Shown here: piece by piece, positions 1-20,442 of the stretch | Layout: every line of letters begins with the position of its first letter | Numbering within the stretch: the first letter of the stretch is position 1 | IMG/VR virus record: IMGVR_UViG_3300026531_000002 | Span: 1-64,000 of that record | DNA: 64,000 bases | From: a virus | Reading direction: 5' to 3' (one strand) | The notes under the pieces: model-generated | Seen by the model: only the letters and a program-made list of their open reading frames with translations | What the model was told of the DNA's origin: nothing | Databases searched by the model: none | Translations under genes and position numbers: made by a program

Positions 1-385
1 ACCTATCCAGCATCAACACAGCACTGAACCAGCATCAACACAGCACCTCACCCGTATTGAACCAGCACCTACCCAGCACCTATCCAGCACCTATCCAGCA
101 TCAACACAGCACTGAACCAGCACCTACCCAGCATCAACACAGCACCTATCCAGCACCTATCCAGCATCAACACAGCACCTATCCAGCACCTCACCCGTAT
201 TGAGACAGCACCTATCCAGCATCAACACAGCACCTCACCCGTATTGAACCAGCATCAACACAGCACCTATCCAGCACCTACCCAGCATCAACACAGCACC
301 TATCCAGCATCAACACAGCACCTACCCAGCATCAACACAGCACCTACCCAGCACCTATCCAGCACCTATCCAGCACCTACCCAGC
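1..385. repeat. Perfect 11-bp tandem array, 35 units
   Basis: From base 1 to 385 the sequence divides exactly into 35 consecutive 11-bp units with no insertions or deletions. The main unit types are ACCTATCCAGC, ACCTACCCAGC, ATCAACACAGC, ACTGAACCAGC and the pair ACCTCACCCGT + ATTGAACCAGC. Nearly all end in CAGC. The order of types is irregular, so it is not a simple higher-order repeat. All frames I checked are stopped, so it looks non-coding. The array begins at or before the window edge. An 11-bp step is close to one DNA helical turn, which places the CAG cores on one face of the duplex. It lies upstream of a terminase small subunit candidate, so a packaging (pac-like) or replication site is plausible; that role is inferred. 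Confidence 0.95.
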
Positions 386-777: not shown

Positions 778-1701
778 ATGGCTAAAAATAAATTACCTAA
801 ACAAAATGCTGATTTAGATATCTTTTCTGACATCTTACAAGGTGAAGATGTGTCAGAACTTGTGCAGAATCTAACACAGGACTTGCACGGAACTGTTTCA
901 AGTAATGACATGGAGTCTGACACAGAACTGTCACAGAATCTTTCAAATACTGGTTCAGAGGTTGACACATATACTGACACAGAACTGTCACAGAATCTTT
1001 CAAATACTGGTTCAGAGGTTGACACGGAGTCTAGCGAAGCTGACACAGAGTCTGCACAAGTTATGACACAACAAACATTAGAACAAAAACTAGACCAACT
1101 TGAAACACCTTTAAAAGTAATAGAACCCACCCCCGAAGAAAAAAGTATGCTAGAACTAGCTGGTGAGGCTACTATGCAATCTGTTACTAAAACTGAATCA
1201 GACTCTTTTTCAGAAGCTGACACGAAGTCTTTTTCAGAAGCTGAATCAGAATCTAACGCAATAATAGAACAAGTGACTGACAAAGCTGTTATGGGAGTGA
1301 CACCAAAAAAACCTTTAAGTTTTGAAGAGTACCAAATAGTTGATATGTACATAGAGGGTAAAACAGAAGCCCAAATAGCTATGGATTTAGCTTTAACAAC
1401 TAAATACATTAAAACAGTCTTATCACGCCCCTATATTAGAAATTATGTAAATGAGATTGTAGAAGTAACTCAATATGCTATGAAACAGAACCGAATAAGG
1501 CTGTTAAATCTTATTGTAAATGCTAAAGTAGAGGAAACATTAGAGCAAGGTTTAAGTTATGCTGACTTGACTAAAAAAGATGTTGTTGATTTAATTAGAG
1601 AGTTAGACGGGCTTCAAAAAGAGAAAGAGAAAAAAGAGTTAGGTACAAACCAAAACAATACTTATGTGAATATCTTACAAAAAATAGTTAAGGACACTTA
1701 G
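778..1701 (+). CDS. Putative terminase small subunit (TerS) with repeat-rich N-terminus
   Basis: This 307-aa protein has a low-complexity, acidic, Ser/Thr/Glu-rich N-terminal 180 residues and a compact C-terminal part. Residues about 180-235 look like a helix-turn-helix unit (SFEEYQIVDMYIEGKTEAQI and following), followed by charged helices and a short hydrophobic tail (NTYVNILQKIVKD). HTH, oligomerising helices, then a short tail is the usual plan of phage terminase small subunits, which recognise packaging DNA; I make this call from architecture only. A 19-residue repeat (starting DTELSQNLSNTGSEVDT) occurs twice. The coding DNA of this part carries CAG words at 11/22-bp spacing, like the array upstream. 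The RBS AAAAAGGA fits the start. TerL is far away at 53.1-54.5 kb. Confidence 0.5.
   Translation: MAKNKLPKQNADLDIFSDILQGEDVSELVQNLTQDLHGTVSSNDMESDTELSQNLSNTGSEVDTYTDTELSQNLSNTGSEVDTESSEADTESAQVMTQQTLEQKLDQLETPLKVIEPTPEEKSMLELAGEATMQSVTKTESDSFSEADTKSFSEAESESNAIIEQVTDKAVMGVTPKKPLSFEEYQIVDMYIEGKTEAQIAMDLALTTKYIKTVLSRPYIRNYVNEIVEVTQYAMKQNRIRLLNLIVNAKVEETLEQGLSYADLTKKDVVDLIRELDGLQKEKEKKELGTNQNNTYVNILQKIVKDT
917..1030 (+). repeat. 57-bp direct repeat inside terS carrying 11-bp phased CAG motifs
   Basis: Two near-identical 57-bp copies (from about 917 and 974) encode a 19-aa repeat. CAG/CGG words inside fall at 923, 934, 956, 980, 991, 1013, 1025 and 1046. The spacings of 11, 22, 24, 11, 22, 12 and 21 follow DNA helix pitch rather than codon length, linking this coding repeat to the intergenic arrays. 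Confidence 0.75.
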
Positions 1702-1745: not shown

Positions 1746-2021
1746 CTATTCAACTTCGTGTCCAACTTCGTGTCCAACTTCGTGTCCAACACTGTCACAA
1801 AGTCTGTTTAGGTTTTGTATAAGCTCTTTTTCAGTATTTTTTTCTGGTATTGAGAAAGAATACCTTTCAAGCTCCTTATTAAGCTCTTTGTTATGATACT
1901 CTTTCCAATTCTTATTCTGATTGTTGTTAAGCTTACTATGAGAATATGAATTTTGGCTAATAATATAAACTAGCCCTAAAATAACCAACACCATAACCAA
2001 ATAAAATCTTTTTTGGCTCAT
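1746..2021 (-). CDS. Small membrane-anchored protein with C-terminal GHEV repeats
   Basis: A 91-aa protein of unknown function. One N-terminal transmembrane segment (residues about 6-22, FYLVMVLVILGLVYIIS) is followed by a polar, Asn/Lys/Glu-rich region and three tandem GHEV repeats at the C-terminus. The GHEV repeats come from a 12-bp DNA repeat (CAACTTCGTGTC on the plus strand). The start has a good RBS (AAAGGAG). A TATAAT box on the minus strand at 2056-2061 suggests a promoter of its own. It is convergent with terS. Confidence 0.7.
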   Translation of the reverse strand: MSQKRFYLVMVLVILGLVYIISQNSYSHSKLNNNQNKNWKEYHNKELNKELERYSFSIPEKNTEKELIQNLNRLCDSVGHEVGHEVGHEVE

Positions 2022-2755: not shown

Positions 2756-2860
2756 CAGCTCTTTCCCAGCATCTGACACAGCTCTTTTCCAGTACCTACA
2801 CAGCACTGACACAGCTCTTTCCCAGCATCTGACACAGCTCTTTTCCAGTACCTACACAGC
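2756..2860. repeat. 11/12-bp phased CAG array
   Basis: CAG words occur at 2756, 2767, 2779, 2790, 2801, 2812, 2823, 2835, 2846 and 2857, each 11 or 12 bp from the next. Units include CAGCTCTTTCC, CAGCATCTGACA, CAGCTCTTTTC and CAGTACCTACA, and a 56-bp block is duplicated. It follows the terminator above. I see no gene between 2572 and 2861. Confidence 0.85.
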
Positions 2861-2861
2861 A

Positions 2862-3068
2862 TCAATAAAGTGTCTTAATAAAAAACACTAACAAGTTCTC
2901 TAGTTCAGCATCTGACACAGCGTTGTGTAATTCCTGTGCTGTTAGTTTGTTGTAAACCTTAGGAGGCTTTCTTTTCTCTTTTGGTTGTGGATTACTAGAT
3001 GTTTCAGCCTTTGGATTACTAGATGTTTCTTTATTTGTTTCTTTTGTTTTGTTAGTATTCATAAACAT
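2862..3068 (-). CDS. Small hypothetical protein with Lys/Pro/Ser-rich N-terminus
   Basis: A 68-aa protein. The N-terminal 40 residues are polar and repetitive (the SSNP motif occurs twice), with a basic KEKRKPPKVYNK stretch. The C-terminus is a short predicted helix. No function can be given. The start is either M1 or M3; the GAAAGG RBS lies very close. Its 3' end overlaps the edge of the 11/12-bp repeat array. Confidence 0.5.
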   Translation of the reverse strand: MFMNTNKTKETNKETSSNPKAETSSNPQPKEKRKPPKVYNKLTAQELHNAVSDAELENLLVFFIKTLY

Positions 3069-5059: not shown

Positions 5060-5225
5060 CAGTCCTATTCAGTCCTGTTTCAGTTTCTGACACGGAATCT
5101 GACACGGAACCCTATTCAGTCCTGTTTCAGTTTCTGACACGGAGTCTGACACGGAACCCTATTCAGTCCTGTTTCAGTTTCTGACACGGAGTCTGACACG
5201 GAACCCTATTCAGTCCTGTTTCAGA
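5060..5225. repeat. 47-bp tandem repeat, about 3.4 copies, with 11/12-bp sub-period
   Basis: Copies start at 5064, 5111, 5158 and 5205 (partial). Each 47-bp unit holds four CAG/CGG-bearing sub-units (CCTATTCAGT, CCTGTTTCAGT, TTCTGACACGG, AGTCTGACACGG) at 11-12 bp spacing. It lies just before the late-type promoter of the tail hub gene. Confidence 0.9.
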
Positions 5226-5235
5226 ATTTAATTAA

Positions 5236-5274: not shown

Positions 5275-7593
5275 ATGGGACAGCATTGTACAACAGTCAG
5301 TTACAGTACCTTAGTAGAATGGGTAATAGGGTACTGCCAAAAGGCTGATAGTGTTTCAGGTTATAAATATAAAGATAAAATTGTATGGGCTGATTGGGTA
5401 AATGATGGAGATATTAGTGGAGCTGAAACTTATGAATTTAAAGGTAAAACAGGAAAACCACCAGAAGGAGATGTTCCACATAATTTTTCAGGCGTAAGCA
5501 AGATAAAAGTCTTAGGGGCTTATGCACCTGCTGCTAGTGATATTAGCCTATGTGTAAATGGTTTCTATGATGCAAGAGGTATTGTTAAAGCGTGGTTTCA
5601 CGAAGCAGAGCCTTTAGATTACGAATACAGACCTTTTGGAGCTTACATAGGAGAAAATGCAACTACTATTCCAGCCACTAAACTAAGATTAAGTAATATG
5701 GACATAGGGAAAGGTGAGGTTTTAACATACTATGATAATGACGTAGATGACTTTATTTTTGGAAAGGTTGGGACAGCTCAAAATGATGCTGGAGAGGATA
5801 CTTATACAGTATTACAGGATAAAGATGGTGAAATAAAAGTCTACCCTATGAATAATATAAGTGCTGCTCCAGAAGTTGTAACAGCCCATAGAATGATATG
5901 GAGAAGCTGGAAAGATATGAACCCTATTGTTATTTTAGTTGATATTTTGTTAGAACATTTACAAATCCCTGTTGATAATTTAGATTTAAGTAGTTTTAGG
6001 TATGCGGCTTTATTGTGTTATGTGGAAAGAATTACTTATAGTGTTTTAATAGATGAAGCTAAAAGTGTAGAGCAGTGGATTAAGTACCTTTTAAAGCCTA
6101 TCTTTGGAGATTTATATTATGACTACCAAACAGGAAAATTAAAAATAAGCTTGCAAAGACATATACCAGATGATATTTCAGAAGAAGAATTAAATGATTT
6201 AGAGATACCTGTCTTAGATGATGATGTAGTTGATGATGTAGTATTAAAAGTAGGTAGTTGGTATGATGTACCTAGTAAGTTTGTTGTAAAATGGACTAAC
6301 TTAGAAGAGAATAAAGTAGAAAGTTTTACAAAAGAAGATATTGCATTATATCAAAACAACCAATTATTTAAGGCTGAAGAGCTAGATTATACTATGATAA
6401 CAAGCAAAGAAACAGCAGACTTTATGGCTAAATATGCTACAAATATAAAAGCAAAACCTATTAAAGAGGTTAGATTTAAATTAAGTGCTTACACTCCTTT
6501 AGAATTAAGTATTACTAACATTATTTATTTAGAGTTAGAGAGTATAAACTTAAAAGGTTTTTATTATATTACAGAATTTGGTAGCAATAAAGAAGAGCAA
6601 CCTTATATAGATGTAACGGCTATTTCAATAGGCTTAGACAGCTCTTTATATTTTGCTAGTGAGGATACTCCTATGCCAAGTGGGGTTGATTTTAGCATCA
6701 GTACTTTACCAGTTTCTGATACGGAAATGATACAGCTTCCTGATTATGTTGGTTTAGCAGGAATTAACCCAGATAAATTTTTTGGAATTGTAAATGAATA
6801 TGTACTAGCAAGTAATGATGAAATTATTGAGAAATACTATGCTAACAAATTAGAGGGTAAAGTATGGAAAAAAGTAGAGTTAGATAGAGCTAACATTGAT
6901 ATAGAACATAATCAAACTGCCTTTAATGCTAAAATACAACTAGATGTGAGTAACATAGAACCTAATAGTAGTTTACAATATAGTTGTAGTGAAAGCGAGT
7001 TCCAACAAGGTAGATTACAAATGTACTTAAATGGGGTTGTGTATTTTATTAGAAAAATTTATAGTAATAACGGGGATTGGTTCATAGAGGGTGTATTATC
7101 TCCTTATAGAAATACTAACATCATAGAAGCAAGTGATGATAACTTAGGAATTAACGTAAGTGGTTTAACAGCTTATATAAGATATGCAACATATAGCACT
7201 AAAGAAATGGAGGTTAACTTAAGTGGTGGCTATACAAAAGAGTACGCAGCTAGATTAGCAAATGATTATACAACAAGTGAAGAGGTAACTCAAACAGTTC
7301 AAATGCAGTATAAATATGTTCCTGAAACATATGCCTATAAAGCAAATGGTAAAGTATATTTTCAACCTTTACACAGCTACGCAGGAAACTTTGATTATAG
7401 ATATGAAAAGGCTAGTAACTATAATTACAAACTATATGATGATAATGAAATAGAGTTAACTGACCTTACATTAGGAATAGATGATGAGAGTGGACACTAC
7501 TATTTTGAGGGGAATGATGTAGCAAATGCAGTATTTATAGGCGTAATTAATCCTGTTACTAATATATTAACAAGAACCCCTATTGAGGTTTAA
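5275..7593 (+). CDS. Tail hub / tail-tip protein (lambda J- or TipJ-like)
   Basis: A 772-aa virion protein. About residues 220-260 contain NPIVILVDILLEHL followed by an LDLSSF segment, similar to the 'NP..IL.D.L......gi' signature of J/TipJ tail-tip proteins. Next come VEQWIKYLLKPIFGDLYYDY and GKLKISL, typical of hub domains, and a hub-like block containing VSKFVVKWTNLEE-type beta strands. The C-terminal 300 residues are beta-rich. These proteins close the tail tube and hold receptor-binding parts. It starts unusually (MGQHCTTVSYSTL) without the usual N-terminal segment, and a short gene at 47256-47489 looks like exactly that segment. The gene heads a + strand operon with 7635, 7909 and 8301. 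Confidence 0.65.
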   Translation: MGQHCTTVSYSTLVEWVIGYCQKADSVSGYKYKDKIVWADWVNDGDISGAETYEFKGKTGKPPEGDVPHNFSGVSKIKVLGAYAPAASDISLCVNGFYDARGIVKAWFHEAEPLDYEYRPFGAYIGENATTIPATKLRLSNMDIGKGEVLTYYDNDVDDFIFGKVGTAQNDAGEDTYTVLQDKDGEIKVYPMNNISAAPEVVTAHRMIWRSWKDMNPIVILVDILLEHLQIPVDNLDLSSFRYAALLCYVERITYSVLIDEAKSVEQWIKYLLKPIFGDLYYDYQTGKLKISLQRHIPDDISEEELNDLEIPVLDDDVVDDVVLKVGSWYDVPSKFVVKWTNLEENKVESFTKEDIALYQNNQLFKAEELDYTMITSKETADFMAKYATNIKAKPIKEVRFKLSAYTPLELSITNIIYLELESINLKGFYYITEFGSNKEEQPYIDVTAISIGLDSSLYFASEDTPMPSGVDFSISTLPVSDTEMIQLPDYVGLAGINPDKFFGIVNEYVLASNDEIIEKYYANKLEGKVWKKVELDRANIDIEHNQTAFNAKIQLDVSNIEPNSSLQYSCSESEFQQGRLQMYLNGVVYFIRKIYSNNGDWFIEGVLSPYRNTNIIEASDDNLGINVSGLTAYIRYATYSTKEMEVNLSGGYTKEYAARLANDYTTSEEVTQTVQMQYKYVPETYAYKANGKVYFQPLHSYAGNFDYRYEKASNYNYKLYDDNEIELTDLTLGIDDESGHYYFEGNDVANAVFIGVINPVTNILTRTPIEV

Positions 7594-7605
7594 TTCAAAT
7601 AAGAA

Positions 7606-7625
7606 CGAAACAACAAACAAAAAAG
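7606..7625 (+). promoter_or_regulatory. Weak late-type motif
   Basis: AATAAGAACGAAACAACAAA before the 7635 gene resembles the GCGAAA late motif, but the G is replaced by A. Confidence 0.25.
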
Positions 7626-7634
7626 GAAAAATAA

Positions 7635-7898
7635 ATGGCTGAAACAATCACAATTACGGAAGACCAAACTTTAATCTTAGAAGGTGGAACTTTATACAAA
7701 CTAGAGGGAGCAAACTTATTACAAAATCAAACTGATACAGAATTGTTTGTTTCTGAAATAGAAGCTGAAGCAGATAAACATAGAGGTTTTTTAGTGTTAT
7801 ACTCTCAAGTAGTGTATATGGACAATAATTTAGGCTATATCAAACCTAAAGAAGACACACAAGTTTACGTTCAAACAGCTGAAACAGCTTCTAATTAA
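7635..7898 (+). CDS. Small virion-type protein
   Basis: An 87-aa protein starting MAETITITEDQTLILEGGTL, with beta-rich sequence and an acidic character. Size, position after the hub gene and beta content suggest a small tail or decoration protein. No specific family recognised. RBS AAAAAGGA fits the start. Confidence 0.55.
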   Translation: MAETITITEDQTLILEGGTLYKLEGANLLQNQTDTELFVSEIEAEADKHRGFLVLYSQVVYMDNNLGYIKPKEDTQVYVQTAETASN

Positions 7899-7908
7899 GG
7901 AGAACTAA

Positions 7909-8292
7909 ATGGCACTTCCTAATGGTTTAGAAGAAATAGTAGAGCAAAGTAGTATTTGGAGACTGATTATTAACAGTAACTTTGCAAAATGCCTAGTTAA
8001 AAATAATGAAGTTTTAAGTCCAACTTTAACAAATAGTTGGGAAACTGAAACAGATGCTAGAGCATTAAAAGTTGAGTGGAAAGGTGAACTAAGACACTTG
8101 CACGGTGTTATTAAGAATGGAAATAATGGTGAGGTTTGTAACTTAAGTGGGTTTGAACCTGATTTTGATATTTACTTTATTGCAGTAAATGCTGATGACA
8201 ACTCTATTTGTAATTTAAAAATACAAAGTGACGGTAAGTTAGTATTTGACAATGGTAATAACAGTAATGTAGTAATTAACATAGTATATTAG
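7909..8292 (+). CDS. Hypothetical virion protein, beta-rich
   Basis: A 127-aa protein with many short beta-type segments and Asn-rich turns (GNNGEVCNLSGFEPDFDIYF). Eleven bases separate it from the upstream stop, with RBS AAGGAG. The neighbourhood (hub before, connector after) suggests a structural role, possibly a fibre or tail accessory protein. No domain recognised. Confidence 0.55.
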   Translation: MALPNGLEEIVEQSSIWRLIINSNFAKCLVKNNEVLSPTLTNSWETETDARALKVEWKGELRHLHGVIKNGNNGEVCNLSGFEPDFDIYFIAVNADDNSICNLKIQSDGKLVFDNGNNSNVVINIVY

Positions 8293-8300
8293 GAGAAATT

Positions 8301-8843
8301 ATGTTTGTAGATTTATTAGAAAGATTTAAATTAATACTAGATTATGAAGCTTCAACAGTTGCTGAAGAAGAGTTTTTAATAGAGTGCTTAAAAAGTGCTG
8401 TGGTGTATGTTGAGAATTATACTCATATCATTTTCGAGTATAAGGAAATAGAAGAACTTGTATTAAGCCTAGACAGTAAACACTATTTCACTAAACATGG
8501 GTATATTCAAGAAGTTAAATACATCTTAGATGAGGATTTACAAGTAATTGATAGTAGTGCTATCAAAGTAAAGCCTGAAAGCAACAAAGTGTACCATAGA
8601 GGCTTACTAAGACCTTTTTACACAATAAAATATAGTGTAGGTTGGAGAAGCATTGATTCAGTTCCTGAAAAGTACTTAACAAGTGTTTTACAATTAGCTA
8701 AAAAAGTGTATTTTGATTTAAAAAAAGATACGGATATTTATACAGCTGAAAGTATAACTGTAAGAGAATATACCAGAACAACTGATAAATTGCCTAATAT
8801 TGTTAGAGATAATTTAGATAGAATGAGATTAGTATATTTATAG
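8301..8843 (+). CDS. Head-tail connector (HK97 gp6-like) candidate
   Basis: A 180-aa protein. Its N-terminus is helical (FLIECLKSAVVYVENYTHI), matching the 'A..yiE.yt' pattern of gp6/phage_connect-type adaptor proteins. It is followed by strands with YTIKYSVGW and a helical segment (YLTSVLQLAKKVYFDL). It ends with a 'LP..V...L...R' tail, also typical of the family. These proteins form the ring beneath the portal that joins head to tail. It is the last gene of the + strand structural cluster and is followed by a hairpin terminator. The assignment is by pattern only. Confidence 0.5.
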   Translation: MFVDLLERFKLILDYEASTVAEEEFLIECLKSAVVYVENYTHIIFEYKEIEELVLSLDSKHYFTKHGYIQEVKYILDEDLQVIDSSAIKVKPESNKVYHRGLLRPFYTIKYSVGWRSIDSVPEKYLTSVLQLAKKVYFDLKKDTDIYTAESITVREYTRTTDKLPNIVRDNLDRMRLVYL

Positions 8844-8850
8844 GTAGCTG

Positions 8851-8890
8851 ACAGGAGGCCAAAATGGTGTTTAATCATTGGGCTTCCTGT
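8851..8890 (+). terminator. Hairpin terminator after connector gene
   Basis: ACAGGA pairs with TCCTGT and GCC with GGC around an AT-rich loop, followed by TTATTTATTT. It sits between the + cluster and the convergent leftward gene at 8899. Confidence 0.5.
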
Positions 8891-8898
8891 TTATTTAT

Positions 8899-9135
8899 TT
8901 ATAATTTTCTTGAACTAAACAATTCAGGAGCTAATTCAATAGCCTCTAAAACATCTTTATCTCTATAAGTCAGCCCCATAGAAATCTTACCAGCTAGAAC
9001 ACCTTTAGTAAAGTTGTCTAAAGTATGACTAGCAAAAAAATACTTGCCCTCTTCAACAAACTTCTTTACCTCGCTTAAAGGTAATCTAGTCAATTTCATA
9101 ACTAAGTTGATTTTTTTAATTTCATTCTTATTCAT
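8899..9135 (-). CDS. Hypothetical small protein
   Basis: A 78-aa helical protein (MNKNEIKKINLVMKLTRLPL...). The segment RLPLSEVKKFVEEGKYF could form a short HTH-like helix pair, but this is weak. Last gene of a leftward pair with 9150-9365. Confidence 0.55.
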   Translation of the reverse strand: MNKNEIKKINLVMKLTRLPLSEVKKFVEEGKYFFASHTLDNFTKGVLAGKISMGLTYRDKDVLEAIELAPELFSSRKL

Positions 9136-9149
9136 TGTTTTCTCCTTTC

Positions 9150-9365
9150 TTAGATTTCTTCTGTTTCAGATATTTGAAAGCCTCTTTTAAAATCTGGATT
9201 GCTAGTCTGTCTTCTAAAGATAGTAGAATCTTTATTCCACTCACCCTCAAATCCTTTTTTATTTACAAAATCAATTAGTTTTTGCTTGTCTTTAGCCACT
9301 GCAACAACCTCTTCATCAGTATAGCCTTGTACTATATCCCAATCAATTAATACATAAGTTTTCAT
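9150..9365 (-). CDS. Hypothetical small protein
   Basis: A 71-aa protein starting MKTYVLIDWDIVQGYTDEEV, with an alpha/beta pattern similar in style to other short phage proteins here. RBS AAAGGAG. Its expected early promoter just upstream appears to be interrupted by the mobile element at 9419-9630. Confidence 0.55.
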   Translation of the reverse strand: MKTYVLIDWDIVQGYTDEEVVAVAKDKQKLIDFVNKKGFEGEWNKDSTIFRRQTSNPDFKRGFQISETEEI

Positions 9366-9418
9366 CTTTATCTCCTTTTTATTTATATGTTTAGCAACTT
9401 TATAGTCACATTAAAAGT

Positions 9419-9525
9419 TTGACACACTCCCCATTGTTAAAACAAGGGGATTCTGGTTTTAAAGCAACAGAAGCCGTTAAGGTCTTATTCTGTCTATACC
9501 AAGAGTTGATGCCCCAACTCTTTTA
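9419..9525 (-). ncRNA. omegaRNA/reRNA-like transcript region of the element
   Basis: On the minus strand a TATAAT box (about 9527-9536) is followed by a hairpin (AAGAGTTG/CAACTCTT, 9501-9522), about 50 nt of linker, then the right-end hairpin and the AGTGTGTCAA terminus. A promoter-proximal structured RNA that ends at the right end, with flanking DNA as a guide, is how TnpB-associated omegaRNAs are organised. No tnpB is present in the window, so any function would need a host or other phage copy. The layout is seen; the RNA itself is inferred. Confidence 0.4.
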
Positions 9526-9630
9526 ATATTATATCATACTTTTTCTTAATTTTAATTTAAAAAGAATTGTTTAAGTAAAGCCTTATATCCCCATTGTTGA
9601 AACAAGGGGTTTTACGGCTAGTTTGGATAA
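9419..9630 (-). mobile_element. Non-autonomous IS200/IS605-like element (no TnpA/TnpB)
   Basis: On the minus strand the element opens TTATCCAAACTAGCCGTAAA, then a hairpin (9589-9609, CCCC/GGGG stem with TTGTT/AACAA arms). It closes with a second, nearly identical hairpin (9429-9449) followed by AGTGTGTCAA. Subterminal hairpins next to asymmetric ends, with no terminal inverted repeats, are the hallmark of IS200/IS605 transposons, which Y1 transposase TnpA mobilises as single strands. No ORF lies inside. The flanks match the conserved early promoter family: TTTAAGG-TTTATT on one side and ACTTTTAATGTGACTATAAA on the other, compared with the intact site at 13541-13590. This indicates insertion into a promoter. 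Confidence 0.65.
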
Positions 9631-9632
9631 TA

Positions 9633-9670
9633 AACCTTAAAGAAAAATAAAACCTATAACTTTTACAAAA
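9633..9670 (-). promoter_or_regulatory. Interrupted early promoter (upstream half)
   Basis: The sequence matches the upstream part of the promoters at 5005-5042 and 13557-13600 (TTTAAGG and T-rich flank), but the -10 half is replaced by the element at 9419-9630. The rest of the gene-free stretch to 9730 shows nothing else clear. Confidence 0.5.
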
Positions 9671-9730
9671 AATATTTAATAGAAATTGAATAGGAGCCGA
9701 AACAGCCCCTTTAAAGTAGATTAGTAGGAA

Positions 9731-11986
9731 TTAAGAAGAACAACTTTCACATTCATCTTTTTCAGCACCTTTTAAGCCATTGAAGTAGTATAATGATTTA
9801 ACTCCGTTTTTATAGCAGTCTAACCATAGCTTTGTCTCCTCCTTAATAGAGTATGACTTATCTTTATCATAAGCTAATTCATAAGTGTTAACTGACTGAC
9901 CCTGCTCCATATATCTTTGTCTTATCCCTGCCAACTCAATCAAATGAGAATTATCAAAAGTGTGTGCTAACTCATATCTGTTTCCAAGCTGTCTAAGGTC
10001 TGGAGCAGGGTTTGGAGTAGCGCCTAAATCTGTTGTTTTGATACTGATAAAGTCCTTAATAGGTTCTATACCCTCTGTTACATTAGCAATTAGAGAACTA
10101 GTAGCAGTAGGAGCGATTGCAAAATGAGTACTGAAACGAACTCCCCTTTCAAGCACTAAATCAGCAACTCTTTCATCTCTTACAAAACTTCTAACCCAAT
10201 TTTCATCTTTCCACTTTGTGTTATTAATTAAAGGAAAAGCTCCTCTTTCTTTAGCAAGCATTGTAGAAGCCTCTATAACTGTTAATTGAAACTCTCTCAT
10301 AGCCTTATCCATCTCTACTTTAGCCTCTTTGGAAGAGAATTTAATATTAATTCTAGCAAAGTACTTAGCAAGGTTGTTGATACCAATTCCAATAGGTCTG
10401 TACATTTTATTAGTAAATTCTCCAGACTTATTAGGATAGAATGCTGTATCAATTAAATTATCTTGTGCTTTTAATAAGTTATAAACCATATTTAATCTAT
10501 CAAACTTACTAAGTAACATAAAATGGTTGATATTAATACTTGCTAAATTACATAACCAAGTATCTCCAACAGCTCTTGTTTTAGTTTCTGTGTATTCTTG
10601 TTCATTAAAACTATAATTAAGTTCTGTATCAACGCCTGCTAAGGGCTGTGCTGGTAACATAATTTCTTGACACAAATTACTTGTAAAAATAGTATCCTTA
10701 AAAGGCGTTGTTTCATTGTTTACAACTTCCTTAAACAGAATATAAATATTACCTGTTTTCTTTCTTTGTTTAATAATTAAAGAAATTAAATCTCTAGCAC
10801 TAACAAACTTCTTTTTAATATGAGGATTTTTCTCATATGTTTCATACATCTTATTAAATTCTTCAATAGTTTTACAATAATTTAGCCCAACCTCTTTAGG
10901 GTCAAATAAAGCAACCTGCTCATCTTTGATAGCTCTTTCAATCAACAAATAATTAATAACAACACTTAGTTTTAAACCTCTAGCTCTTTTTTCAGGAACT
11001 CCCCCCTTATCATTAAGCATAACAAAATCCTCTATATCAAGACCCCACCAATCATAAGCAGCAATTCCAGAACCCTTGCGAAGACCGCGCTGATTAAAAG
11101 CATTAATAGTAGCCTCATAAAGTTTTGAAAAAGGAACTATACCACTACTTTTTCCGCCTGTTAAGTCAATAGAACTACCCATACTTCTTAAAAAGCCTAT
11201 ATACCAACTGATACCACCTCCGTAACGGCTGTATAAGCCTGCATCATTAGTGTTTGCTAAAATAGACTCACTATCATCAGCAATATTCATAACAACACAA
11301 CTAGCAACTTGTTGGGTTTTTGTTAGGGAACTAATCCATTTTGGTGTAGCTTCTGTGTAAGCAACCTCACCAGTATCCGTATTACCTGTTAAGTCGTTGT
11401 ATCTTTGCTTAATAAGTGCTAAAGTATCTGCACAATATTCTTTAGGTTTATTACTAAGTTCTTCTACAAATGGAGCTAAAGCAACTCTCATATAACCTAA
11501 TTGAGGAAGCTCACCTTTGAATAGGTATTTATCAAACATATTAATAGCACCCATAATAGTAAGCCTAAAATCTAATTCTGGTTTAATCATATTATCCAGC
11601 TCCTGCCAAACATCTGGTCGGATACCGTCAAGCTTTTCTAAATCAATCCCTACTATATTACCTGACATAATTGTTTCTGAAAAAATAGGGTATTCTCCTG
11701 CGTGTTTAATGCCATATAACTCTTTTTGTTTTTTTTGCACATAAAACCTACCAGCTATATTGGCAAACTCTGGATACATTCTACTAATTAGATTCTTAGC
11801 TGTATCAATATATAAATCTAATAAGTCATCTGAACTTATTTCATTTCTGTTATTTATTACTTCTTCTATTTCACTTCTAAAAATAGGAATTAAACTCTCA
11901 TAACCTCTAAAAGTAAATTTAATTTGATTGTCAAGTTTTCTATAATCAAAAGCCTCTATCTCACCATTTCTTTTTTTTACTTGCAT
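9731..11986 (-). CDS. nrdA: Ribonucleotide reductase class Ia, large subunit
   Basis: A 751-aa catalytic subunit that reduces ribonucleoside diphosphates to dNDPs with NrdB. An N-terminal ATP-cone (residues about 1-90, MQVKKRNGEIEAFDY) suggests dATP/ATP control. Active-site residues are present: C230 (VASCVVMN), the N437-x-C439-x-E441 triad (SNLCQEIM), APTATSS near 625, the Y733-Y734 radical-transfer pair (SLYYFNG) and the C-terminal shuttle cysteines C746 and C749 (ECESCS). Length matches E. coli NrdA. It is separated from nrdB by more than 33 kb and lies on the other strand. It has its own promoter and a terminator upstream, so it is transcribed apart from dut and its neighbours. Confidence 0.97.
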   Translation of the reverse strand: MQVKKRNGEIEAFDYRKLDNQIKFTFRGYESLIPIFRSEIEEVINNRNEISSDDLLDLYIDTAKNLISRMYPEFANIAGRFYVQKKQKELYGIKHAGEYPIFSETIMSGNIVGIDLEKLDGIRPDVWQELDNMIKPELDFRLTIMGAINMFDKYLFKGELPQLGYMRVALAPFVEELSNKPKEYCADTLALIKQRYNDLTGNTDTGEVAYTEATPKWISSLTKTQQVASCVVMNIADDSESILANTNDAGLYSRYGGGISWYIGFLRSMGSSIDLTGGKSSGIVPFSKLYEATINAFNQRGLRKGSGIAAYDWWGLDIEDFVMLNDKGGVPEKRARGLKLSVVINYLLIERAIKDEQVALFDPKEVGLNYCKTIEEFNKMYETYEKNPHIKKKFVSARDLISLIIKQRKKTGNIYILFKEVVNNETTPFKDTIFTSNLCQEIMLPAQPLAGVDTELNYSFNEQEYTETKTRAVGDTWLCNLASININHFMLLSKFDRLNMVYNLLKAQDNLIDTAFYPNKSGEFTNKMYRPIGIGINNLAKYFARINIKFSSKEAKVEMDKAMREFQLTVIEASTMLAKERGAFPLINNTKWKDENWVRSFVRDERVADLVLERGVRFSTHFAIAPTATSSLIANVTEGIEPIKDFISIKTTDLGATPNPAPDLRQLGNRYELAHTFDNSHLIELAGIRQRYMEQGQSVNTYELAYDKDKSYSIKEETKLWLDCYKNGVKSLYYFNGLKGAEKDECESCSS

Positions 11987-12007
11987 ATAATTCTCCTTTT
12001 TGTTTTA

Positions 12008-12032
12008 ATGTTATAATTGTAGTATATAGTAG
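12008..12032 (-). promoter_or_regulatory. Candidate nrdA promoter
   Basis: A minus-strand TATACT (AGTATA at 12021-12026) lies just after the terminator hairpin and about 35 bp before the nrdA start. Confidence 0.4.
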
Positions 12033-12034
12033 CT

Positions 12035-12064
12035 GAAAAAGAGCTGAAACGGAACTGTTTCAGC
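12035..12064 (-). terminator. Terminator between dut operon and nrdA
   Basis: GCTGAAAC and GTTTCAGC form an 8-bp stem (12043-12064). On the minus strand it is followed by TCTTTTT. Confidence 0.7.
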
Positions 12065-12066
12065 CT

Positions 12067-12402
12067 TTAGTAGAATAAACCTTCGTCGCGGTAGATTATA
12101 CTTGATTTACCTTTTAAATCTGTATAAGGTGGGATTATCTCAATCCATTGTCCATTGTCTAAATAGAATTTTTTTCTATCAACTTTAATAATTGAGTAAC
12201 CCATTTCTCTAATAAGAAATCTTAATAAATACTCCAAATAAGGAACTGAAACAGAATTTAAAGCAACAACTGTTACATTGTTTCCAAAGTCTGTTTCAGT
12301 TAAAGCTTGTATCAGCATATTAGTAGTTTTTCCACTACCTCTACCTGTTACTACTCTATTAAATGTATTATGAACTCTATCAATATCTAATTTTTTAGCC
12401 AT
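12067..12402 (-). CDS. Small P-loop protein
   Basis: A 111-aa protein with a clear Walker A motif near residues 20-27 (TGRGSGKTT) and a strand at about 44-50 (VTVVAL), as in P-loop NTPases. It is only about half the size of a complete ATPase domain, and no Walker B acid is obvious. It may be a truncated terminase- or helicase-type ATPase kept as a regulator, or a domain that acts with a partner. It lies 3 bp downstream of dut and ends just before a terminator. Confidence 0.6.
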   Translation of the reverse strand: MAKKLDIDRVHNTFNRVVTGRGSGKTTNMLIQALTETDFGNNVTVVALNSVSVPYLEYLLRFLIREMGYSIIKVDRKKFYLDNGQWIEIIPPYTDLKGKSSIIYRDEGLFY

Positions 12403-12404
12403 AT

Positions 12405-12854
12405 TTAGTCCTTGTTAGTAGAGCCTAAACCACCATTTCTTTGCTTGTTTTCTCTATATTTATTGCCTAATAGAGTGTTACCTTGATGTTCCATAATAAG
12501 AATTTGTGCAACCCTATCTCCTTTATTGATAACAAAAGGCTCACTATTCAAATTGTGTACAATCAATTTTACTTCATCTGTATAGTCAGCATCTAAAATA
12601 CCTGTACCAGCAAGTAACCCTTTAGCTCTTAAAGAGCTTCTTAGTTCTAACTGAATAAAAATATCCTGCATAACAATCTTTTCAAGACCGTCAAGGTCTT
12701 CCCAATCATAACTAAAACCTAATGGAATAATAGCTGTTGAATTAGCTGGTAAGGTTACAGTAACCCTGCTTACACAATCATATCCTGCACTATATTCAGT
12801 CTTAGCTTTTGGTATACAATCAATTTCTTTGTCTAAGTTTTTAAAGTTAATCAT
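12405..12854 (-). CDS. dut: Trimeric dUTPase
   Basis: A 149-aa enzyme that hydrolyses dUTP to dUMP and PPi, which keeps uracil out of phage DNA and supplies dUMP to ThyX. All five motifs are visible: SAGYDCVS (1), LRSSLRAKGL (2), GILDADYTDEV (3), KGDRVAQILI (4) and a Gly-rich C-terminal NGGLGSTNKD (5). In motif 5 the usual stacking Phe is Leu. Length is standard. Its start codon overlaps the upstream stop by one base. Confidence 0.95.
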   Translation of the reverse strand: MINFKNLDKEIDCIPKAKTEYSAGYDCVSRVTVTLPANSTAIIPLGFSYDWEDLDGLEKIVMQDIFIQLELRSSLRAKGLLAGTGILDADYTDEVKLIVHNLNSEPFVINKGDRVAQILIMEHQGNTLLGNKYRENKQRNGGLGSTNKD

Positions 12855-13195
12855 TAATCCCCCTTTAATACTTTAGCAGTTGCCGCTGCCATTAAAATAT
12901 CAATAGTTTGTTTATTACTCTTGTCAATATAACACATAAGTTTTTTATAATATTCATATGGAGTATCCTTATCAAGGCTGTCAAGGCTCTCTAATTTACC
13001 ACTCATTAATAATTCTGGCACAATATATACAGTAAGAGCATCTAACCCTAACAATAAAAGACCTAAAAGCTCTTCATCAGTTGGCTCTCTATACCCATTT
13101 GTTTGTGCTTCTACAACATAATCAGCAGCTTTACTTATAATACTCTCTTTATCCTCTAATTTTTTTGGTACATTTAATTCATCTATTGTTCTCAT
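12854..13195 (-). CDS. Hypothetical helical protein
   Basis: A 113-aa helical protein (MRTIDELNVPKKLEDKES...), with a Leu-rich central helix (LLGLLLLGLDALTVYIV) that could be buried or membrane-associated. No family recognised. Translationally coupled to dut. Confidence 0.6.
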   Translation of the reverse strand: MRTIDELNVPKKLEDKESIISKAADYVVEAQTNGYREPTDEELLGLLLLGLDALTVYIVPELLMSGKLESLDSLDKDTPYEYYKKLMCYIDKSNKQTIDILMAAATAKVLKGD

Positions 13196-13208
13196 TTTGT
13201 ATCCTTTC

Positions 13209-13511
13209 TTATGCTTCTAAAAATTCTATTTGGTCTAAAGTTACAATGCTTTCTGCACCATCATACTCTTCAATATAAAACTTAGTCCCCTTTGGAACAA
13301 ACTCAAAATCAAGGTCTTCAAAATATATAGCATCCTTGCCTAGCCCGTATCTCTCCTCTAAGATAGAGAAAAATCTTTTTTCATCATTATTTAATACAGC
13401 CTCTACTAAATCCTTATCCATTGGGTTAATATTATTCCAAGTTGAAAACCCAGCACCAAAATTAGGTGAAATAATAACACCAACCATATTGTCTTTGATA
13501 AATTTTTCCAT
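13209..13511 (-). CDS. Hypothetical protein, first gene of dut operon
   Basis: A 100-aa protein starting MEKFIKDNMVGVIISPNFGA, with an acidic C-terminal half. RBS AAAAGGA. No domain recognised. It follows the intact early promoter at 13557-13600. Confidence 0.6.
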   Translation of the reverse strand: MEKFIKDNMVGVIISPNFGAGFSTWNNINPMDKDLVEAVLNNDEKRFFSILEERYGLGKDAIYFEDLDFEFVPKGTKFYIEEYDGAESIVTLDQIEFLEA

Positions 13512-13556
13512 TTCATTTCCTTTTAAAATTAATTTTGCGACTTCATAGTCACATTA

Positions 13557-13600
13557 GAAGTATAACAAACAAAACCTTAAATAAAAATAAAACTTATAGA
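13557..13600 (-). promoter_or_regulatory. Early (Campylobacter sigma70-like) promoter
   Basis: On the minus strand TTTATTTAAGG, a T-rich spacer and TTGTTATACTTCTAATGTG carry an extended -10 (AGTATA at 13559-13564). This is the intact version of the site interrupted at 9419-9630. Confidence 0.65.
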
Positions 13601-13625
13601 TTTTACAAAAGAAATTTGAAAGAGT

Positions 13626-13641
13626 TGAGGCGGAAGCCTCA
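13626..13641 (-). terminator. Short hairpin after polA
   Basis: TGAGGC-GGAA-GCCTCA forms a perfect 6-bp stem. On the minus strand it is followed by a pyrimidine-rich but not purely T run, so this is a moderate candidate. Confidence 0.45.
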
Positions 13642-13647
13642 TAAGTA

Positions 13648-16332
13648 CTAAGAAAGTGTTGCCCAAGTGTCCCCATATTCTGGCTCTGCTTCCATAGGCA
13701 AGAAAACAGAAGCATTTTTATCAAAATAATCATCAAACTTTTCCATACTGTAACTTATTAAATTTCCTTGTAATTCAATATCACTATTACCTGAAACAAC
13801 CCTTTTTAGGTATTCTCTATAATCTGGTGAAATCTCTTCTTTTAAATAAGCATAAACAGCATCATGTATAATATTAACTAAAACTGTGTCATATTTAAAT
13901 GCAGGTGTGTTATAGTATAACCATTCCGTAGCATTAATAGTAGCTAATCCAGAACTTTGAATACTAAAATTCACAGCCACCCTTTCATCTTTACTGCTAA
14001 TCCAGCTTAATTTACTCTTAAGATATGGCAACAGCACATAATGACTGCTGAAACGGCTTAAATAATAGTTAGCCTTTAAAGGTCTGTCACAGCCTGTTAT
14101 ATAAAAAATAGGGTGTGGTAACTCTAATTCTTGACTCTTAGCTTTTTCAATAGTTTGCATATTATAATTATAAGTAGCTTTATAGGCTTCCCAATAGTTG
14201 TCATAAATAAATCTTTCATTCTTCTTAAAAGATTGTCTTTGTTTAAGATAGTTTAAAGAAAATGTATATCCCTTACTGTCTTGTCTTAATTTAGGGTACT
14301 TTTTCTTAATACTATTAATATCATCTTTAATAGCCTTAATATACTCAACACTACCTACTTCCAAACCTTTTGTTTTATTCTCAATAGCTTCTTTCACATC
14401 TGGCATTTTGTCAGACCAATAAGAATAAGTATTGTAACAGTGACTATCAATACCATATTTAGTAATAGCATAAAGAGCCTCATCTTGTGCTTCATTAATC
14501 CCTACACGGCTCTCTAATGCAGAATAGTCAGCCCCTACCATCATATAACCATCAGGAGCTTTAAAAACATCTTTGATAGTCTTTCCATACTTGCTTCCAG
14601 ATGGGATTGTTAATAAAGACACTACTCCAGAACTACTCAAACGGCGTGATAAAGTTCCTGTTTGGTTGAATTGATTAAACACTTTATAGGTTCCTGCTCC
14701 TGTATGCACACAACCATCATTTAAGTTTGTAATATAAGTATTAAGAGCTTTTTTAAGGTCTTGAATATCTTTAATTTGTTGTATCAACTCTTTATCCTCT
14801 TCAGATACATTAGGATTTTCTAACCAAAATGCCAAAGTATCCTTATCAGTCTTTCTATCTTTATCTAATAAAGGTAAACCCATAACCTCATAATAAAGAG
14901 TTTGTTTATGATTAGGGCTAGCTATGTTGAATTTAATATGTTTAAAGTCAGCTATTGTTTTTTGTTTTTTGTGTTGGCGATTATATTTTTCCATAGCAGA
15001 AAACCTTAGCAGGATTTCAGCTTCAGCTATTTTTGGGTGTCCTATAACTTCCTTTTTCTTTTCTTCATCATAATACCCGATGAGAGCTTTCTCATCATCT
15101 TCAAGCATTTTTGGTAACTCTACTACAAGTCTTTCTAACTTTGCTTTATCCACTTCCATACCATTCAAAGCCATATAAGTTAGCACTTTAGATTGTCTAA
15201 TCATACTTAAATAGGCTTTTCTTAGTTCGTTTTTTAAAGGGTGTTGTTTAAGAATATCTAATAACCAGTAATAAATTCTTTTAGTTGCTATTACATCTAT
15301 ATTATTATAAGTTGCAACCTCTCTAATATCAGCATTAATTAAGTCTGATTGGTCAATGTTCTCATCATACTCTCCAAACCACTTATAAGAAAGAGCTTTC
15401 AAAGAATTTGATGTTCTTTCTGTACTATTAAATACTAAGTAAGCTAAAAATAAAGTATCCTCATAGTTTTGTTTTTGTGTTATTTCATAATACTTTGTGT
15501 GGTCTTCTGCATTATAAAAATTGCCTTTTAAATATAGATTATGTATTAAAAAAGGATTATCAAAGTTAGCCCAATTATGCCCTACTATTTTCTTACTTTC
15601 TTGATACTTTAAAAGAAACCTACTAACAACTTCTGAAATAGCTTCATCTCTCAAATCAAAACAATAAGCTGTTTCATCTTTTGTCCCAAAACTAATTGTA
15701 AGAAGCCCATCTTTATACCAATAAAGCCCTGTTGTTTCAATATCAACAAACAAAATAGGCTCTTTAAATAACTTAGTCAGCACTTTTAAAGCTTCTGATT
15801 TAGTATTTATAAAGTTATCCTGTTCTGATTTTATCTTTTCAAAACCTTTTACAAACCCTGTTTCAATTTGTCTATACACTTCTGTTTTATTCCCACCATT
15901 AAAACCTTTAAGGTTCTGTAAAAGCTGTTGTAACATTTTTAATTTATATGGTGTAGTGGTAATCTGATATGTATCAAAAATAGGCACAATATGTTTAGGA
16001 CTATTTGTTATTTTTTTTACTAACTTACTTTGAGGCAGTAGCATACCAACTGCTAAATCAGGCTTAGAAAGTGTTGTAAGAAACTTTAGCAGTGCCTTAT
16101 CAGATGCTAAAATATACTCAATATCATATAAATCTTCTAGTTTAGCAATCTCTTTTAAAGCTCTCTCAACCTCGTCTTTTTTTATTGTGTTTTTTATAGG
16201 GATATCTACCCCTATAACACAAGACTCCTCTAAAATATCTTTGTATATAACTAAATCAGAAGTTTTAAATTTATTCTCATTTACTAAAATTACATACTTA
16301 ACAGCATCTGAATGATTAAATAATACTTCCAT
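13648..16332 (-). CDS. DNA polymerase A family with 3'-5' exonuclease
   Basis: An 894-aa replicative polymerase. The proofreading exonuclease spans about residues 190-360, with VDIETTG (D197, E199), HNWANFDN (D258) and YNNIDV (D346). In the polymerase domain, motif A is GADYSALESR (D602). Motif B follows the R-x3-K-x3-F-x3-Y spacing (R683, K687, F691, Y695). Motif C is IIHDAVYAY (H823, D824), where the usual Glu after the catalytic Asp is Ala. The first 180 residues match no domain I know. There is no 5' nuclease domain; that activity is a separate gene (19514-20419). It has its own promoter. Confidence 0.93.
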   Translation of the reverse strand: MEVLFNHSDAVKYVILVNENKFKTSDLVIYKDILEESCVIGVDIPIKNTIKKDEVERALKEIAKLEDLYDIEYILASDKALLKFLTTLSKPDLAVGMLLPQSKLVKKITNSPKHIVPIFDTYQITTTPYKLKMLQQLLQNLKGFNGGNKTEVYRQIETGFVKGFEKIKSEQDNFINTKSEALKVLTKLFKEPILFVDIETTGLYWYKDGLLTISFGTKDETAYCFDLRDEAISEVVSRFLLKYQESKKIVGHNWANFDNPFLIHNLYLKGNFYNAEDHTKYYEITQKQNYEDTLFLAYLVFNSTERTSNSLKALSYKWFGEYDENIDQSDLINADIREVATYNNIDVIATKRIYYWLLDILKQHPLKNELRKAYLSMIRQSKVLTYMALNGMEVDKAKLERLVVELPKMLEDDEKALIGYYDEEKKKEVIGHPKIAEAEILLRFSAMEKYNRQHKKQKTIADFKHIKFNIASPNHKQTLYYEVMGLPLLDKDRKTDKDTLAFWLENPNVSEEDKELIQQIKDIQDLKKALNTYITNLNDGCVHTGAGTYKVFNQFNQTGTLSRRLSSSGVVSLLTIPSGSKYGKTIKDVFKAPDGYMMVGADYSALESRVGINEAQDEALYAITKYGIDSHCYNTYSYWSDKMPDVKEAIENKTKGLEVGSVEYIKAIKDDINSIKKKYPKLRQDSKGYTFSLNYLKQRQSFKKNERFIYDNYWEAYKATYNYNMQTIEKAKSQELELPHPIFYITGCDRPLKANYYLSRFSSHYVLLPYLKSKLSWISSKDERVAVNFSIQSSGLATINATEWLYYNTPAFKYDTVLVNIIHDAVYAYLKEEISPDYREYLKRVVSGNSDIELQGNLISYSMEKFDDYFDKNASVFLPMEAEPEYGDTWATLS

Positions 16333-16360
16333 AACTATCCTTTTTGTTAAAATAATAGAA

Positions 16361-16390
16361 AGGATAACAAAAAAAAACTTAAAAAGAGAT
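16361..16390 (-). promoter_or_regulatory. polA promoter, early type
   Basis: On the minus strand TTTTTAAG, a T-run and TTGTTATCCTTTC match the early promoter pattern (TG-n-TATCCT). Confidence 0.5.
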
Positions 16391-16401
16391 TAAAAGAAAA
16401 G

Positions 16402-16424
16402 ACAACCCCCTAGTAGGGATTGTG
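16402..16424 (-). terminator. Terminator after 16430-17350 gene
   Basis: On the minus strand CAATCCC pairs with GGGGTTG (one G-U) around TACTAG and is followed by TCTTTTCTTTT. Confidence 0.65.
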
Positions 16425-16429
16425 TTATG

Positions 16430-17350
16430 TTAGTTAGTACCTAATTGAGTAGGGCAGATTTCCTCACCTAAAGCTAGAGCAAGATTTAAAGAGATGTCTT
16501 TATTAACCCAAATAAAAGAACTTACATATAATGAATGTCCATGGTCATCATCATCAATAATAATTCCGTTAAAATAATTTGCACCAGAACTATCAGACTT
16601 AAAATAGTTAGCCGCATCTGAACCTGTGTATAAATCACCTGTATAATTATCTTTAACTGCTAAAACTTTTTCTGATACCCTGCCACTCCCTGCTTGTTTT
16701 ATATCTAATATAACTGTATACCATCTACCACTTTCTGCATTACTTCCTATCTTATATTTGTAGTAATAGTTACTTGCAGATTCAGGGTTTCCAACTGCTA
16801 CACAAAAATCATAGTCTTTATCAAAAGCACTATCTCCATAATAAAAATTAAAAATCATTTTACTATGGTTTGTAATTAAAGCATATGCGTTCTCTTTATT
16901 TGTTATTGGTCTATCAATGTAAGTATATTGATTAACTTTTAATAAAGGTATAGGAGTGCCTTTGTAATTTTCGTCCCATGTTAGTTCATAATCTGCTTCA
17001 CTATATGCTTGTACATCTGCAAAGTTTAAGTCTTCATAATCATTATTATCTTCGTTCCAGCGTCTAATCTTATCTTTGTCAGCAATCATAGGGGCTTGTG
17101 TTACAATATAAGGAAAATCATCACCAAAAGGAGTCTTTTTACCCCAATCATACTTAGCTGCTATTACTTCCCCTCCTTTTGTTTCAAAAGTGTAGCTCTC
17201 CCTAAAATCAAAAACTGTTCCGTCACTTGTAGTAACTTTAAATAAACAACTATTACCTACTACTTGAATATCTCTTCCTCTTTCATCACCATCTTTATCA
17301 GGAATTTGAAAGTACATATCACTATCTTTCCAGATTGTTATTTTATCCAT
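16430..17350 (-). CDS. Putative virion protein, unknown
   Basis: A 306-aa acidic, Tyr/Asp-rich, probably beta-rich protein. The N-terminus (MDKITIWKDSDMYFQIPDKD) resembles a small domain often seen on phage baseplate or fibre proteins, but I cannot name a family. A weak late-like motif (AAAACGAAACAAAC on the minus strand, about 17371-17388) precedes it. With its neighbour 17385-18428 it may form part of a surface or fibre structure. Confidence 0.55.
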   Translation of the reverse strand: MDKITIWKDSDMYFQIPDKDGDERGRDIQVVGNSCLFKVTTSDGTVFDFRESYTFETKGGEVIAAKYDWGKKTPFGDDFPYIVTQAPMIADKDKIRRWNEDNNDYEDLNFADVQAYSEADYELTWDENYKGTPIPLLKVNQYTYIDRPITNKENAYALITNHSKMIFNFYYGDSAFDKDYDFCVAVGNPESASNYYYKYKIGSNAESGRWYTVILDIKQAGSGRVSEKVLAVKDNYTGDLYTGSDAANYFKSDSSGANYFNGIIIDDDDHGHSLYVSSFIWVNKDISLNLALALGEEICPTQLGTN

Positions 17351-17384
17351 TGTTTAGTCCTTATTTTTTTTGGTTTGTTTCGTT

Positions 17385-18428: not shown

Positions 18429-18448
18429 AATACCCTCTCATTTTTTGT

Positions 18449-18465
18449 GGAGGGTATCGAAAATT
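18449..18465 (-). promoter_or_regulatory. Candidate late promoter (TCGATA variant)
   Basis: On the minus strand AAATTTTCGATACCC, 20-35 bp before the start codon at 18428, fits the structural-gene motif family with TCGATA instead of GCGATA. Confidence 0.4.
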
Positions 18466-20419: not shown

Positions 20420-20442
20420 TTGTTACCCTTTCTGTTTTTAAG

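What the first reader, a model, noticed from the sequence alone, without database searches (positions are those of the whole stretch)
1..385. Perfect 35-unit array of 11-bp repeats in helical phase
All 385 bases parse into 11-bp units with no indel, yet unit sequence varies among about five types in irregular order. This suggests selection on spacing (one helical turn) and on a CAGC edge, not simple slippage. 11 bp is not a multiple of 3 and all frames are stopped, so it is a DNA-level element. It could be a packaging site read by a TerS ring, a replication origin with phased binding sites, or a protein-coated bending array.
Basis: partly seen in the sequence, partly recalled or inferred. Interest (0 to 1): 0.8.

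Follow-up and report, generated by a model that had tools for sequence, protein, structure and literature searches.

The report
Phage genome with phased CTG-N3-CAG motifs
The 11-base repeats at the start of this phage sequence are real, and they are the densest patch of a spacing pattern (CTG, three bases, CAG, repeated every 11-12 bases) that also runs through the protein-coding genes of the whole phage, as if an unknown protein lines up along one face of its DNA.

Summary
The array is real: bases 1-385 are 35 indel-free 11-bp units of seven exact types in an order no different from random. It starts at the end of a 69,350-bp linear IMG/VR contig, so it is cut off. It is not isolated. Arrays of the same unit, CAG-NN(N)-CTGACA, recur in intergenic DNA and inside genes. 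In one gene the motif is read in all three frames. In 54 kb of coding sequence outside arrays, AG/CT dinucleotides are phased at 11-12, 22-24 and 33-36 bp beyond synonymous-codon shuffles (z=12.2 at lag 11). Spectral power is 115 times the null, against at most 10 in nine control sequences. The rigid element is the dyad CTG-N3-CAG: 78 copies against about 9 expected, with a 2-3 bp linker. Coding pairs show the same consensus as the arrays. It argues for a DNA-level cooperative binding code, with dense patches around a terS-like gene and the contig ends. Which protein binds is unknown. Packaging, partition or a chromatin-like coat remain inference. Period is 11-12 bp, not 10.5. No relative carrying the code was found.

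The parts
1..385 (+). 35-unit, 11-bp array, consensus CAG-NN-C(Y)(K)A-YM; seven exact unit types; truncated at the contig start
586..730 (+). Degenerate array upstream of the terS-like ORF: at 631-729 nine different units in strict 11-bp register (mean pairwise identity 52%, CAG kept in 8 of 9)
778..1701 (+). terS-like ORF, 307 aa, acidic N-terminal half, C-terminal match to small terminase (phrog_3802, E=2e-7); no Pfam or NCBIfam match
854..1258 (+). In-gene arrays in the terS-like ORF, including a 57-bp duplication at 917-1025; motif units of 11-12 bp
1751..1790 (.). 12-bp repeat CAACTTCGTGTC in the 3' end of ORF 1746-2021 (gives GHEV repeats); possibly a related unit
2756..2868 (+). Ten-unit array of mixed 11 and 12 bp units, contains an exact 56-bp duplication; overlaps the end of ORF call 2862-3068
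5066..5233 (+). Intergenic array of 47-bp blocks = 11+12+12+12 bp units, about 3.4 copies, upstream of ORF 5275-7593
11990..12062 (-). Short run of three units in 11-bp register upstream of the ribonucleotide reductase gene (9731-11986, -)
29504..29612 (+). Short runs (three plus two units in 11-bp register) in the intergenic region at the GC-skew switch
43047..43204 (+). 12-bp array (13 units) in the 3' part of the head-protease ORF, CAG on the strand opposite to the gene (gives PTTEPEAE repeats)
53100..54491 (-). Large terminase, distant T5-type (26% identity); context for packaging hypotheses
5275..63971 (.). Genome-wide phased AG/CT code in coding sequence outside arrays, present in every segment tested (the whole-record test also uses bases beyond the window)

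Best explanation
The array is the densest member of a genome-wide set of phased sites. The repeating element is a 9-bp dyad, CTG-NNN-CAG (often CTGACACAG or CTGAAACAG), joined by a flexible 2-3 bp linker, so successive elements fall every 11-12 bp (shown by sequence statistics). The most likely mechanism is inferred: a small symmetric DNA-binding protein, phage-encoded or from the host, binds one dyad per near-turn and spreads cooperatively along one face of the phage DNA. The arrays around the terS-like gene and the contig ends would be high-affinity nucleation sites, and the weaker phased sites in genes would let the filament spread. Choosing phage DNA for packaging, or holding and partitioning it, are the likeliest uses; this last step is a guess.
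For: Shown: outside the arrays, CAG-CAG spacing of 11 and 12 bp is enriched on both strands, and there are 18 chains of four or more units (the big array excluded) against 0.6 in order-2 Markov sequence. In 57 ORFs (54.4 kb) AG/CT autocorrelation exceeds synonymous-codon shuffles: z=12.2 at lag 11 (605 observed, 437 expected), with further peaks at 21-24 and 32-36 and troughs at 16-19 and 28-30. The excess remains without the tape-measure gene and in every genome segment. AG and CT are in antiphase, with spectral power 115 times the null; nine control sequences reach at most 10. CT to AG is mostly fixed at 7 bp, while AG to CT is more flexible. CTG-N3-CAG: 33 against 14.1 expected in coding, no other spacing enriched; 78 in the record against 8.7. 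Coding pairs carry the same bases as array units: C before AG, CT(T) at +4 to +6, A at +9, with the CT shifted by one at lag 12. In ORF 68075-68911 twelve units are read in all three frames. Periodicity is specific to AG/CT and CA/TG, not to GA/TC or AC/GT, which argues against generic slippage.
Against: No binding protein is identified, and no ParB, ParR, HU or ribbon-helix-helix family was found among the proteins scanned. The terS-like protein could not be modelled (pLDDT 43) and has no tblastn match in the phage collection. No relative with the same code was found, so conservation is untested. Average spacing of 11.5 bp drifts against a 10.5 bp helix unless the DNA is underwound. Each major unit type in the 385-bp array is copied exactly, which points to recent copying there. 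A mutation process that is itself periodic is not excluded.
Confidence: 0.45

Rival explanations
1. The arrays are the pac (or terminal-repeat) region: the small terminase made by ORF 778-1701 binds them to start packaging, as SPP1 gp1 is thought to use repeats that span the start of its own gene. The wider code is a side effect or a separate matter.
For: The terS-like ORF is 393 bp downstream of the big array and itself contains arrays; TerL is T5-type and T5 uses terminal repeats; repeats cluster at both contig ends, 68.9-69.35 kb and 0-5.2 kb; SPP1 pac has direct repeats at the start of its small terminase gene (PMC4737164).
Against: The same unit occurs at 5.1, 12, 29.5, 43 kb and genome-wide in synonymous sites, which a single pac does not need. 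SF6 terminase DNA-binding domain showed little specificity for the repeats (PMC4737164). T5 and VspSw_1 lack the code.
Confidence: 0.18
2. The arrays are minisatellites made by slippage and recombination with no function, and the coding signal is decayed remnants of such insertions.
For: Exact unit copies in 1-385; exact 56-57 bp and 47-bp duplications at 917-1025, 2756-2861 and 5064-5224. Arrays inside genes sit in low-complexity stretches. Other phages carry pure 11-bp and 10-bp tandem arrays.
Against: At 631-729 nine units in strict register share only 52% identity with CAG kept. Unit order in 1-385 has no block-duplication signature. The coding signal is largely restricted to AG/CT and CA/TG, lies at synonymous sites in conserved genes and is spread along the whole genome rather than in a few islands.
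Confidence: 0.2
3. It is an extreme case of the general 10-11 bp dinucleotide periodicity of cellular genomes, whose cause is unknown.
For: Such periodicity is under selection in many genomes and a binding partner has been proposed (PMC7537859). A few lytic phages show it (same paper).
Against: Large phages generally lack curvature-related periodicity (PMC3431218). In E. coli practically only AA/TT contribute (abstract of PMC516772). Here AA/TT is ordinary while a sequence-specific dyad dominates, at a power at least ten times any control including Erwinia phage Ea35-70.
Confidence: 0.12
4. The arrays are a centromere of a phage-plasmid, bound by a ParR- or TubR-like protein.
For: ParR and TubR centromeres use 10-12 bp direct repeats (general knowledge); the phage carries a Replicase-family gene of plasmid type at 28122-29336 and an antirepressor.
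Against: No ParA, ParM, TubZ or RHH protein was detected; a centromere would not need phased sites in every gene.
Confidence: 0.05

Closest known systems
SPP1/SF6 pac region and small terminase
   Same: Direct repeats next to and inside the start of a small terminase gene
   Different: SPP1 has three short repeat sets at one place; here the unit is 11-12 bp, many copies, and repeated across the genome including synonymous sites
Genome-wide 10-11 bp dinucleotide periodicity (class A flexible patterns; Atzinger and Lawrence 2020)
   Same: Phased motif through coding and non-coding DNA, seen at synonymous sites, unknown partner
   Different: Dominant signal is AG/CT and CA/TG in antiphase forming CTG-N3-CAG, period 11-12 bp, far stronger than controls, with explicit arrays, and in a phage
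Stoperators of L5-like mycobacteriophages
   Same: Many copies of one short protein-binding site dispersed through a phage genome (general knowledge)
   Different: Stoperators are single 13-bp sites in intergenic DNA tied to transcription; here sites are phased in tandem and also in genes
ParMRC parC / TubRC tubC centromeres
   Same: Tandem 10-12 bp repeats for cooperative dimers (general knowledge)
   Different: No partner genes found and the motif is genome-wide
T5 injection-stop and terminal-repeat region
   Same: Non-coding repeats in the terminal region of a phage with a related large terminase
   Different: T5 repeats are 23 bp of another sequence and T5 shows no AG/CT phase

Membership tests
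SPP1-type pac | Direct repeats adjacent to or inside the small terminase gene | tested here: met
   Arrays 1-385, 586-730 and 854-1258 around and inside ORF 778-1701
SPP1-type pac | Repeats confined to the packaging site | tested here: not met
   Same unit at 2.8, 5.1, 12, 29.5, 43 kb and phased code in all genome segments
SPP1-type pac | Packaging series starts at the site; small terminase binds it | not testable with these tools
   Needs reads and protein
A-tract / AA-TT 10-11 bp periodicity | AA/TT phased with no strand antisymmetry is the main signal | tested here: not met
   AA/TT power 6.7 times null, similar to controls; AG-CT signed power 115 times
Genome-wide dinucleotide periodicity (broad sense) | Some dinucleotides phased at 10-12 bp in coding DNA beyond synonymous shuffles | tested here: met
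ParMRC or TubZRC centromere | Tandem 10-12 bp repeats | tested here: met
ParMRC or TubZRC centromere | Adjacent genes for a filament protein and an adaptor | tested here: not met
   No such family among scanned proteins
Minisatellite made by slippage | Neighbouring units more alike than distant ones, block duplications | tested here: not met
   Random unit order in 1-385; met only for the 47, 56 and 57 bp blocks elsewhere
Stoperators | Dispersed copies of one short repressor-binding site in intergenic DNA, oriented with transcription | tested here: not met
   59 of 78 CTG-N3-CAG sites lie in ORFs and the site is a dyad without orientation; repressor binding not testable

The most novel reading that the evidence does not exclude
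The whole phage genome is written with a sequence-specific phased binding code, superimposed on its genes through synonymous codons, for a protein that forms a continuous filament of about 11.5 bp per unit on phage DNA: a phage chromatin code with the arrays as nucleation sites.
Probability: 0.3. Interest if true: 0.92.

Novelty: new variant of a known kind. Interest (0 to 1): 0.72.

Why it matters
Why coding DNA in many genomes carries a 10-11 bp dinucleotide phase, and what reads it, is an open question; phages were reported to lack strong curvature-related phase. This phage shows a far stronger phase that resolves into a defined 9-bp dyad with explicit arrays, so the unknown reader protein could be sought directly by DNA affinity. 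It would also show synonymous sites of a virus constrained by a DNA-level binding code.

Tried and rejected
Blastn of bases 1-800 against phage and plasmid records: no match. Rfam and tRNA scans: nothing. A shared CAGCAYC 11-bp array family across phages was considered after 23 IMG/VR hits, but period 10 gives 14 hits and a degenerate four-unit search gives only nearly pure tandem copies, so these look like ordinary slippage arrays. CTGACACRG pairs in viral and bacterial contigs are mostly Asp-Thr repeat proteins or single chance pairs. A survey for other carriers of the code among 295 fetched loci found none as consistent. Portal and TerL relatives: none close. Amphipathic-helix coding signal: excluded as the main cause by synonymous shuffles. 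RNA-level signal: unlikely because both sense AG and sense CT are phased. AlphaFold of the terS-like protein: too poor to use. Host assignment and a search of Campylobacterota genomes (promoter-like repeats suggested that phylum, a guess): not possible with the handles available.

Full report
What was given. The window is bases 1-64000 of a 69,350-bp linear IMG/VR virus record. It is about 31% G+C and encodes a tailed phage: portal, HK97-type head protease, major head protein, a T5-type large terminase, a tape measure of about 2,000 aa, DNA polymerase, helicases, primase, ribonucleotide reductase, ThyX, dUTPase, an antirepressor, and a plasmid-type Replicase gene.

The observation. Bases 1-385 are 35 indel-free units of 11 bp of seven exact types. 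The order of types has no repeated word longer than three units and does not differ from shuffled order. Longer exact repeats were assembled elsewhere in the same contig, so assembly does not force this. Base 1 is the contig end, so the array is truncated there.

The same unit elsewhere. Arrays with unit CAG-NN-CTGACA (11 bp) or CAG-NNN-CTGACA (12 bp) lie at 586-730, 854-1258, 2756-2868, 5066-5233 and 43047-43204. Beyond the window they lie at 68131-68288, 68861-69115 (minus strand) and 69257-69338 of the record. At 631-729 nine different units (52% mean identity) keep strict 11-bp register. In ORF 68075-68911 the motif occurs in all three codon phases (5, 4 and 3 of 12), so the repeat there is a property of the DNA, not of the protein. 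In the head-protease gene the motif is on the strand opposite to the gene.

The genome-wide phase. Outside the arrays CAG-CAG spacing of 11 and 12 bp is enriched on both strands. Outside the first 400 bases there are 18 chains of four or more units against 0.6 in Markov sequence. I then used only ORFs of at least 100 aa that contain no array (57 ORFs, 54.4 kb) and compared them with synonymous-codon shuffles, which keep every protein and codon count. CAG at lag 11: 20 against 6.5, z 5.8. AG/CT at lag 11: 605 against 437, z 12.2, with maxima at 11-12, 21-24 and 32-36 and minima at 16-19 and 28-30. AG to CT peaks at 3-5, 14-18 and 26-29; CT to AG peaks at 6-7 (z 12.1 at 7), 16-19 and 28-32. The signal is present without the tape-measure gene and in each segment. 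It is found in both sense AG and sense CT, and it shifts the whole distribution of local power rather than only a few islands. The period is 11.5 bp at short range, moving to 12.0 at long range where the codon frame biases it.

Specificity. Signed AG-CT power is 115 times the null and CA-TG 44 times, while GA-TC and AC-GT are near the null. In T4, CP220, HTVC008M, Presley, 11b, Twort, PV036460, an E. coli segment and Erwinia phage Ea35-70 no signed AG-CT value exceeds 10. A peak-to-trough index over 295 other loci has mean z 0.15 and sd 0.9; this phage scores about 10 as a whole and 2.3-6.1 in each slice of about 10 kb. T5 and VspSw_1 lack the phase. Generic duplication would phase all dinucleotides, so this is sequence-specific.

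The element. CTG-N3-CAG is enriched in coding (33 against 14.1) and no other CTG-CAG spacing is. The record holds 78 such sites against 8.7 from an order-3 Markov model, 21 of them in the first 5 kb; all spacings under 60 bp fall near multiples of 11-12. In coding pairs of AG at lag 11 the enriched bases are C at -1, C or T at +4 to +6 and A at +9. At lag 12 the CT is shifted by one. These are the bases of the array unit. The rigid part is therefore CTG-N3-CAG and the flexible part the 2-3 bp linker. This joins the array and the genome-wide code into one phenomenon. Within the 385-bp array itself most units carry CCTATC, CCTACC or TCAACA rather than a perfect CTG, so the dyad is imperfect there and CAG is the constant half.

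Interpretation. A rigid dyad with a flexible linker at near-helical spacing is what tandem binding of a symmetric dimer would need; that is an inference. Arrays cluster near the terS-like ORF (phrog_3802) and both contig ends, which makes packaging or genome handling attractive, with SPP1 pac as precedent (PMC4737164). The genome-wide spread argues against a single pac site and for a coat or spreading complex. Average spacing of 11-12 bp implies either a slow superhelical drift or underwound DNA. No candidate binder was identified by family searches.

Relation to what is known. Periodicity of 10-11 bp in cellular genomes is known and thought selected, with an unknown partner, and a few lytic phages show it (PMC7537859). 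Large phages generally lack curvature-related periodicity (PMC3431218). Class A flexible patterns are T-based (PMC1242344). I found no report of an AG/CT antiphase code, of a phased CTG-N3-CAG dyad, or of arrays joined to it; the paper library is limited to open-licence papers and the searches were few.

Limits. One genome, one contig, no reads, no host, no relatives carrying the code. Synonymous shuffles remove codon-pair effects, but these would not give an 11-bp oscillation. A periodic mutation process acting on protein-bound DNA could create part of the coding signal without selection; it would still imply phased protein-DNA contact. The controls are nine sequences plus about 295 short loci, not a census of phages.

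Noticed in passing
window 29409-29482 and 30580-30653: 74-nt inverted repeat, 92% complementary, 1.1 kb apart, at the point where GC skew changes sign and next to the Replicase gene 28122-29336; possible replication origin
   Followed up: no
window 2573-2606, 9419-9452, 9579-9612, 30352-30385: Four dispersed copies of a 34-nt element around CCCCATTGTTAAAACAAGGGG, a short hairpin
   Followed up: partly
window 36916-36970, 45424-45478, 48216-48270, 52379-52433; inverted at 4998-5041, 13553-13609, 29365-29408: Family of promoter-like repeats TTTAAGCTTTATTTTGTTATACTT upstream of genes
   Followed up: no
window 25953-26005: 23-bp tandem repeat ACTTTTTCGGCAAATCCCGAAGA in ORF 25879-26214, not of the CAG type
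   Followed up: no
window 28122-29336: Replicase-family gene (PF03090) with distant matches to replication initiators of small enterobacterial plasmids, unusual in a phage with a T5-type large terminase
   Followed up: partly
window 8301-8843: ORF with a weak match to a sialyltransferase family, below cutoff
   Followed up: no
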